Positions 20,840 through 21,190 of a stretch of DNA of 64,000 nt are shown here, in pieces (the stretch's first letter is position 1; each line of letters begins with the position of its first letter). A program made the translations under genes and the position numbers. The stretch comes from Gammaproteobacteria bacterium. Its GTDB lineage: Bacteria; Pseudomonadota; Gammaproteobacteria; Pseudomonadales; Azotimanducaceae. Location of the stretch: contig JAPPDJ010000143.1 of NCBI GenBank assembly GCA_028824555.1, positions 18,655 through 82,654 on the forward strand. The letters are read 5' to 3'. The notes under the pieces are model-generated. The model searched no databases and was not told the DNA's origin. It worked only from the letters and a program-made list of their open reading frames with translations.

Positions 20840-21190
20840 CTAAAGCAGTTCCTCCACCTTCTCCGAAGGCCGGGCGATGACGGCCTTCTCGCCGCGCACG
20901 ATTATGGGGCGTTGCATCAGCTTTGGATGCTCTTGCAGCAGGCCCACCACTGCGTCTCGGGTGGTGTAGTCAGCGGCGTTCAGGCCCAGCGCCTTGAAGT
21001 TGCGGTCGTTGCGGACGAACTTGGCCGGCGGCTCGCCGACAAGGTCGATGAGACGCGCCATCGTGGCCGCATCAATGGGGGTCTTGAGGTATTGAACGAC
21101 ATCGAACTCGACGTCGCGCTCGCGCAGGATGTCCAGCGCGCCGCGTGATTTGCCTCACCCCGGGTTGTGATAGACGACGATGCGATCCAT
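20840..21190 (-). CDS. arsC: ArsC-family arsenate reductase with in-frame TGA at codon 12 (candidate selenocysteine)
   Basis: MDRIVVYHNPG[TGA]GKSRGALDILRERDVEFDVVQYLKTPIDAATMARLIDLVGEPPAKFVRNDRNFKALGLNAADYTTRDAVVGLLQEHPKLMQRPIIVRGEKAVIARPSEKVEELL. NPxCxKSR active-site motif with TGA (21157..21155) in place of Cys; otherwise open. Confidence 0.8.

What the first reader, a model, noticed from the sequence alone, without database searches (positions are those of the whole stretch)
20840..21190. Candidate selenocysteine arsenate reductase: in-frame TGA exactly at the ArsC catalytic Cys
Seen directly: from ATG at 21190 (minus) the frame reads MDRIVVYHNPG-TGA-GKSRGALDILRERD... and is open for 104 further codons to a TAG at 20840. 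The single stop (21157..21155) is codon 12, where the NPxCxKSR motif of glutaredoxin-dependent ArsC carries its catalytic Cys; the rest (YLKTP, FVRNDRNFKALGL, HPKLMQRPIIV, RPSEKVEELL) is an intact ArsC. A decay mutation falling by chance on this one codon of 117 is unlikely. Sec-containing ArsC-like proteins have been reported in marine metagenomic selenoproteome surveys (from memory). The ORF track lost the first 43 codons because it treats TGA as stop.
Basis: partly seen in the sequence, partly recalled or inferred. Interest (0 to 1): 0.92.

Follow-up and report, generated by a model that had tools for sequence, protein, structure and literature searches.

The report
Selenocysteine ArsC with displaced RNA hairpin
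A bacterium from a marine (partly sponge-associated) gammaproteobacterial family makes an ArsC-type reductase in which a UGA 'stop' codon is read as selenocysteine at the catalytic position; such selenoproteins have been known from seawater surveys since 2005, but here a conserved RNA hairpin that probably directs the recoding sits unusually far from the UGA.

Summary
The ORF at 21190..20840 (minus) has one in-frame TGA, at codon 12, the ArsC catalytic position. The same genome holds tRNA-Sec, SelA, SelB, SelD and a second TGA gene (SelW-like). In the 207 genomes searched from this family, 29 carry a TGA-containing arsC (30 genes). All 28 distinct TGA genes examined have it at codon 12 and stay open to the usual end, down to 52% protein identity; close relatives carry TGC there.

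The gene is not new in kind. Sec-ArsC (UxxS) was reported from the Sargasso Sea (2005) and GOS (2008).

What may be new is the recoding signal. Sec forms, and only Sec forms, share a 7-bp hairpin with an AGUU loop at +42..+59 after the UGA (28/28 versus 0/33 Cys forms), almost frozen at synonymous sites. Its loop resembles that of the lineage's SelW hairpin. It meets the published bSECIS model except for spacing: 46 nt, against 16-37. A second constrained hairpin lies between it and the UGA.

Whether arsenate is the substrate is less certain: the score is just below the TIGR00014 cut-off, and the genome has no Acr3.

The parts
20840..21190 (-). arsC-family selenoprotein gene, 116 residues with Sec12, stop TAG
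   Evidence: Sequence and translation; Pfam ArsC 51.7 bits; AlphaFold model pLDDT 91.7, TM 0.87-0.90 to solved ArsC
21155..21157 (-). In-frame TGA, codon 12, read as selenocysteine at the catalytic Cys position (NPG-U-GKSR, UxxS)
   Evidence: TGA at the same codon in 28 distinct homologues; TGC/TGT in Cys-type homologues
21123..21145 (-). Hairpin 1 of the recoding element (+12..+34 after the T of the TGA): stem CGCGG/CUGCG
   Evidence: 95.2% of cells paired in 25 distinct sequences; codons 16, 17, 22, 23 have 1, 3, 2, 3 third-position changes in Sec forms against 7, 6, 6, 6 in Cys forms
21098..21115 (-). Hairpin 2 (+42..+59): GACGUCG-AGUU-CGAUGUC, 7 bp, proposed SelB-binding SECIS hairpin; AGUU loop at 21108..21105
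   Evidence: 7/7 pairs and AGUU loop in 28/28 Sec forms, 0/33 Cys forms; pairing probability 0.975-0.995 in every Sec form; 1 third-position change in codons 26-31 against a median of 44 per 6-codon window

Best explanation
The gene encodes an ArsC-family (thioredoxin-fold) reductase in which UGA at codon 12 is decoded as selenocysteine by tRNA-Sec and SelB. Sec12 is the only Cys/Sec residue in the protein. By homology to glutaredoxin-coupled E. coli ArsC it would act as a single selenol nucleophile that attacks the oxyanion held by Arg60, Arg94 and Arg107, with glutathione/glutaredoxin resolving the intermediate. Recoding is most likely driven by a two-hairpin element inside the coding sequence. 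Hairpin 2 (+42..+59, AGUU loop) would be bound by SelB; hairpin 1 (+12..+34) lies between and may shorten the path from the UGA: without it the spacer is 16 nt, against 15 nt from the UGA to the hairpin in the same lineage's SelW gene. Shown by sequence: the TGA, its conservation, the Sec machinery, and RNA-level constraint specific to Sec forms. Inferred: Sec insertion itself, SelB binding to hairpin 2 and the spacer role of hairpin 1 (about 0.6-0.7 likely), and arsenate as substrate (about 0.6). The confidence below is for the Sec-ArsC core claim.
For: Own genome: tRNA-Sec 67.1 bits, SelB 382.6, SelA 515.8, SelD 243.7 bits, all over cut-off. A second TGA gene in the own genome, SelW-like CxxU. 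Thirty TGA arsC genes in 29 genomes of six genera. SelB over cut-off in 7 of the 8 TGA-arsC genomes among the relatives. TGA also serves as an ordinary stop here: SecF, SecD and QueA end in it. H8, S15, R16, R60, R94, R107 are invariant in all 28 Sec forms, and position 12 is the only Cys/Sec in all but L040. Fold match to E. coli ArsC 1i9d, TM 0.87. RNA. The SelW hairpin of the lineage (GCGGUCAGUYUGGCUGC, +18..+34) shows the same A-G-U start of the loop.
Against: No protein or selenium data. One TGA-arsC genome, G033, has no SelB in its assembly (550 contigs, 91% complete). Hairpin 2 has only one compensatory double change (L036) and a few wobble-type variants; its covariation does not exceed shuffles, so the case rests on synonymous-site constraint and the Sec/Cys contrast. 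Its spacing of 46 nt is outside the 16-37 nt model (PMC13188914). TIGR00014 is missed by 2 bits and Acr3 is absent from the own genome.
Confidence: 0.95

Rival explanations
1. It is a Sec protein, but its substrate is not arsenate: a housekeeping ArsC/Spx-like thiol (selenol) reductase acting on another substrate.
For: No Acr3 in the own genome or in 15 of 16 genomes of the genus; score just below the TIGR00014 equivalog cut-off; no ars-operon neighbourhood: next to secDF in the own species cluster and in different places elsewhere.
Against: R60/R94/R107 triad invariant; close Cys homologues pass TIGR00014; nearest solved structures are ArsC enzymes; ArsB was not searched.
Confidence: 0.35
2. 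The SelB-binding element is hairpin 1 (standard bSECIS distance); hairpin 2 is conserved for another reason, such as a pause or accessory structure.
For: Hairpin 1 lies at the usual distance from the UGA and is stable in most Sec forms; its stem codons are also constrained only in Sec forms.
Against: [quoted passage not shown] hairpin 2 never varies in its loop and resembles the SelW loop.
Confidence: 0.25
3. Pseudogene, or a sequencing or assembly error at the Cys codon.
For: Only one stop; the window is from a fragmented metagenome assembly.
Against: TGA at the same codon in 28 distinct homologues, including single-contig genomes, with frame, active-site residues and RNA constraint kept.
Confidence: 0.01
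4. General reassignment of TGA to a sense codon in this organism.
For: A TGA lies inside a conserved frame.
Against: TGA ends SecF, SecD, QueA and 28 of the 47 longest non-overlapping ORFs of the window; no internal TGA in the eight neighbouring genes checked.
Confidence: 0.005

Closest known systems
Selenocysteine arsenate reductase 'ArsC 1' (UxxS) of the Sargasso Sea and GOS selenoproteomes (PMC1088965, PMC2398784; TIGR00014 UxxS, MBT3519430.1 in PMC13188914)
   Same: ArsC/Pfam PF03960 family, Sec in place of the catalytic Cys, UxxS motif, marine bacteria
   Different: Here tied to a genome with its Sec machinery and to 29 genomes of one family with Sec/Cys switching. The hairpin at 46 nt spacing is not mentioned in the passages of those papers I read; their figures are not held, so their drawn SECIS could not be compared.
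E. coli R773 plasmid ArsC (glutaredoxin-coupled; PDB 1i9d, 1jzw)
   Same: Fold (TM 0.87), catalytic position 12, Arg60/Arg94/Arg107
   Different: Sec in place of Cys12; about 35% identity; shorter C-terminus (116 aa against about 140)
ArsC-like selenoprotein NF041106 / 'Arsenate reductase 2' (UxxC)
   Same: Same broad ArsC family, Sec at the same motif
   Different: That family is UxxC; this one is UxxS and does not hit NF041106
Bacterial SECIS elements (E. coli fdhF type and the bSECIS consensus)
   Same: Coding-region hairpin downstream of the UGA, small apical loop with G then U
   Different: Spacing from UGA to apical loop 46 nt instead of 16-37; an extra hairpin in between; no bulged U equivalent to U17

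Membership tests
Sec-containing ArsC (UxxS) | ArsC family match over the whole read-through protein | tested here: met
   PF03960 51.7 bits, cut-off 24
Sec-containing ArsC (UxxS) | In-frame TGA aligned with the catalytic Cys of homologues; UxxS | tested here: met
   U12-G-K-S15; TGC/TGT in Cys homologues
Sec-containing ArsC (UxxS) | TGA conserved in independent homologues | tested here: met
   30 genes in 29 genomes, 28 distinct loci
Sec-containing ArsC (UxxS) | Sec machinery (selA, selB, selC, selD) in the genome | tested here: met
Sec-containing ArsC (UxxS) | Selenium actually incorporated | not testable with these tools
   Needs 75Se labelling or mass spectrometry
Bacterial SECIS (bSECIS model of PMC13188914) | Stem of 4-16 bp, loop of 3-9 nt | tested here: met
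   Hairpin 2: 7 bp, 4-nt loop in 28/28
Bacterial SECIS (bSECIS model of PMC13188914) | G in the first two loop positions, mostly followed by G or U | tested here: met
   Hairpin 2 loop A-G-U-U in 28/28
Bacterial SECIS (bSECIS model of PMC13188914) | MFE <= -7.5 kcal/mol | tested here: met
   -8.1 for the own hairpin 2; across the 28, -10.2 to -5.6, only L066 above -7.5
Bacterial SECIS (bSECIS model of PMC13188914) | Spacing of 16-37 nt from UGA to apical loop | tested here: not met
   46 nt for hairpin 2; hairpin 1 is in range, but its loop in the own gene lacks the required G
Glutaredoxin-dependent arsenate reductase (TIGR00014 equivalog) | Score over the curated cut-off | tested here: not met
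   104 bits against 106.05; four of five close Cys homologues pass
Glutaredoxin-dependent arsenate reductase (TIGR00014 equivalog) | Arg60, Arg94, Arg107 and ArsC fold | tested here: met
   Invariant in 28 Sec forms; TM 0.87 to 1i9d
Glutaredoxin-dependent arsenate reductase (TIGR00014 equivalog) | Arsenite exporter in the genome | tested here: inconclusive
   Acr3 (TIGR00832) absent; ArsB not searched
Glutaredoxin-dependent arsenate reductase (TIGR00014 equivalog) | Reduces arsenate | not testable with these tools
   Needs an enzyme assay

The most novel reading that the evidence does not exclude
In this family the arsC SECIS is a displaced, two-part element. The SelB-binding hairpin sits 46 nt from the UGA, outside the accepted range, and an intervening hairpin brings it back to working distance. 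Cys-type arsC genes already carry up to 6 of the 7 stem pairs, so in this gene a Cys-to-Sec switch would need TGC to TGA plus a loop change from ACUU to AGUU (Asp28 to Glu28) and stem tuning: a testable route for how a SECIS arises inside a coding sequence.
Probability: 0.6. Interest if true: 0.6.

Novelty: new member of a known kind. Interest (0 to 1): 0.45.

Why it matters
Sec-ArsC had been known mainly from metagenomic surveys, and such selenoproteins remain largely uncharacterised biochemically (PMC13188914). This ties it to genomes that carry both the machinery and close Cys-type relatives, and two genomes (G006, G007) hold a Sec copy and a Cys copy side by side, so the gain from selenium can be compared within one background. 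The conserved hairpin at 46 nt would, if it is the SelB site, widen the accepted geometry of bacterial SECIS elements and explain why some selenoprotein genes fall outside the prediction model.

Tried and rejected
Searching the own genome for the core TCGAGTTCGA of hairpin 2 (83 hits) found no second gene with the extended stem and a TGA at the same distance, so the exact sequence is specific to arsC and not a genome-wide SECIS. The class-level search (387 genomes) found only Cys-type homologues at E <= 1e-28 outside the family. The secDF neighbourhood was considered as a functional link and dropped: it is found only in the own species cluster. An ars operon was looked for around arsC without success. 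Pseudogene, sequencing error and TGA reassignment were rejected. One protein alignment failed for a wrong frame and was replaced; one tree script failed on a stop codon in a row and was replaced.

Full report
What is there. On the minus strand, ATG at 21190 opens a 117-codon frame ending in TAG at 20840, interrupted once, by TGA at 21157..21155, codon 12. Read through, it is an ArsC-family protein from end to end (PF03960 51.7 bits, cut-off 24; PDB arsenate reductases). The TGA falls on the catalytic Cys, giving NPG-U-GKSR (UxxS).

It is not decay or error. A search of 207 genomes of the family found 30 arsC genes in 29 genomes (six genera) with exactly one internal stop, always TGA. The 28 distinct loci examined all carry it at codon 12, down to 52% protein identity. 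Genomes assembled as one contig carry it too (G226, G227, G228). Cys-type homologues carry TGC or TGT at the same codon. Active-site residues H8, S15, R16, R60, R94 and R107 are invariant in the Sec forms, and position 12 is the only Cys/Sec in all but one of them. TGA is an ordinary stop in this genome: SecF, SecD and QueA end in it.

The machinery is present. The own genome (4.2 Mb, 182 contigs) has tRNA-Sec (67.1 bits over a cut-off of 47), SelB and SelA side by side on the same contig as tRNA-Sec, and SelD. It has a second selenoprotein gene: a SelW-like CxxU gene with one TGA (G000:C85:68649-68852). Among the relatives searched, 7 of 8 genomes with a TGA arsC have SelB over the cut-off. 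The exception, G033, is a 550-contig assembly. G005, which shows SelW-TGA but no SelB over the cut-off, suggests that such absences can be assembly gaps.

The recoding element. Comparing 28 Sec forms with Cys forms shows RNA-level constraint only in the Sec forms. Positions are counted from the T of the TGA as 0. Hairpin 2 (+42..+59) reads GACGUCG-AGUU-CGAUGUC. All seven pairs and the AGUU loop are kept in 28/28 Sec forms; none of 15 close or 33 total Cys forms has both (the Fisher value 6.6e-12 ignores relatedness). On the protein tree, codons 26-31 need one third-position change, against a median of 44 for six-codon windows. They include GAT and GTC, which the window's own genes use for only 27% of Asp and 25% of Val. 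The hairpin forms with probability 0.975-0.995 in every Sec form. Variation keeps the pairing: one double change (A-U to G-C in L036), two A-U to G-U and one C-G to U-G. That is too little for a covariation test by itself (59 of 500 shuffles reach it). Hairpin 1 (+12..+34) is also constrained in Sec forms only at its stem codons 16, 17, 22 and 23 (1, 3, 2, 3 changes against 7, 6, 6, 6 in Cys forms), but its loop varies and its stem is broken in L061.

Which hairpin does SelB read? The published bSECIS model asks for a 3-9 nt loop, a 4-16 bp stem, a G among the first two loop bases usually followed by G or U, MFE <= -7.5 and 16-37 nt from UGA to loop (PMC13188914). In E. coli, U17, G23 and U24 matter, with the upper stem-loop 11 nt from the UGA (PMC8659212). 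Hairpin 2 meets every condition except spacing, which is 46 nt (one homologue, L066, also misses the energy limit). The SelW genes of the same lineage carry an invariant hairpin at +18..+34 whose loop also begins A-G-U, at normal spacing. Leaving hairpin 1 out of the path, the arsC spacer is 16 nt against 15 nt in SelW. My reading is that hairpin 2 is the SelB site and hairpin 1 a spacer that folds away; this is inference, about 0.6-0.7 likely. Cys forms have ACUU in the loop (Asp28) where Sec forms have AGUU (Glu28), so the protein sequence appears to bend to the RNA.

Evolution. On the tree, Sec and Cys labels need 4 changes, at least 2 forced by well-supported branches (112 columns, so resolution is limited). 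Two genomes (G006, G007) hold one Sec and one Cys copy; G127 holds two Sec copies. Direction of change cannot be read from this unrooted count. Outside the family, the class search found only Cys-type close homologues.

Function. The AlphaFold model (pLDDT 91.7) matches E. coli ArsC at TM 0.87, and the arsenate-binding arginines are invariant. Against a firm arsenate reductase label: TIGR00014 is missed by 2 bits, Acr3 is absent from the own genome and 15 of 16 genomes of its genus, ArsB was not searched, and no ars genes were seen alongside. I call it an ArsC-family selenoprotein, probably an arsenate reductase.

Novelty. Sec-ArsC with UxxS was reported from the Sargasso Sea (14 sequences, PMC1088965) and GOS (77 sequences, PMC2398784) and is listed in a 2026 review (PMC13188914). 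This gene is a new member of that kind. I found no held paper on selenoproteins in sponge-symbiont Gammaproteobacteria. The displaced two-hairpin element is the part that may be new; the figures of the earlier papers are not held here, so I cannot exclude that it is visible in them.

Noticed in passing
L206 (G000:C85:68649-68852, minus), outside the window: SelW/Rdx-like selenoprotein gene with in-frame TGA (FCMSU) followed by a hairpin GCGGUCAGUCUGGCUGC; the TGA gene occurs in most family genomes searched.
   Followed up: partly
G006 (L073 and L071), G007 (L034 and L072): Two genomes with both a Sec-type and a Cys-type arsC copy; the Cys copy lacks hairpin 2.
   Followed up: partly
L087 and L094 (G127): One genome with two Sec-type arsC copies on different contigs.
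   Followed up: no
L038 (G012), codon 12-15: A Cys-type arsC nested among Sec forms in the tree with C-G-K-C in place of U-G-K-S, a possible Sec-to-Cys reversion that gained a second Cys.
   Followed up: no
window 14519..15832 (minus): 437-aa ORF with many CxxCH motifs, looks like a multihaem c-type cytochrome.
   Followed up: no
window 21248..21265 (minus): Terminator-like hairpin at the end of secF, just upstream of arsC; consensus match only.
   Followed up: no
G000:C88:37784-38704 (L019, minus): SelD match lies in a 749-aa open frame with no internal stop, so it may be a fusion protein and a non-Sec SelD.
   Followed up: no
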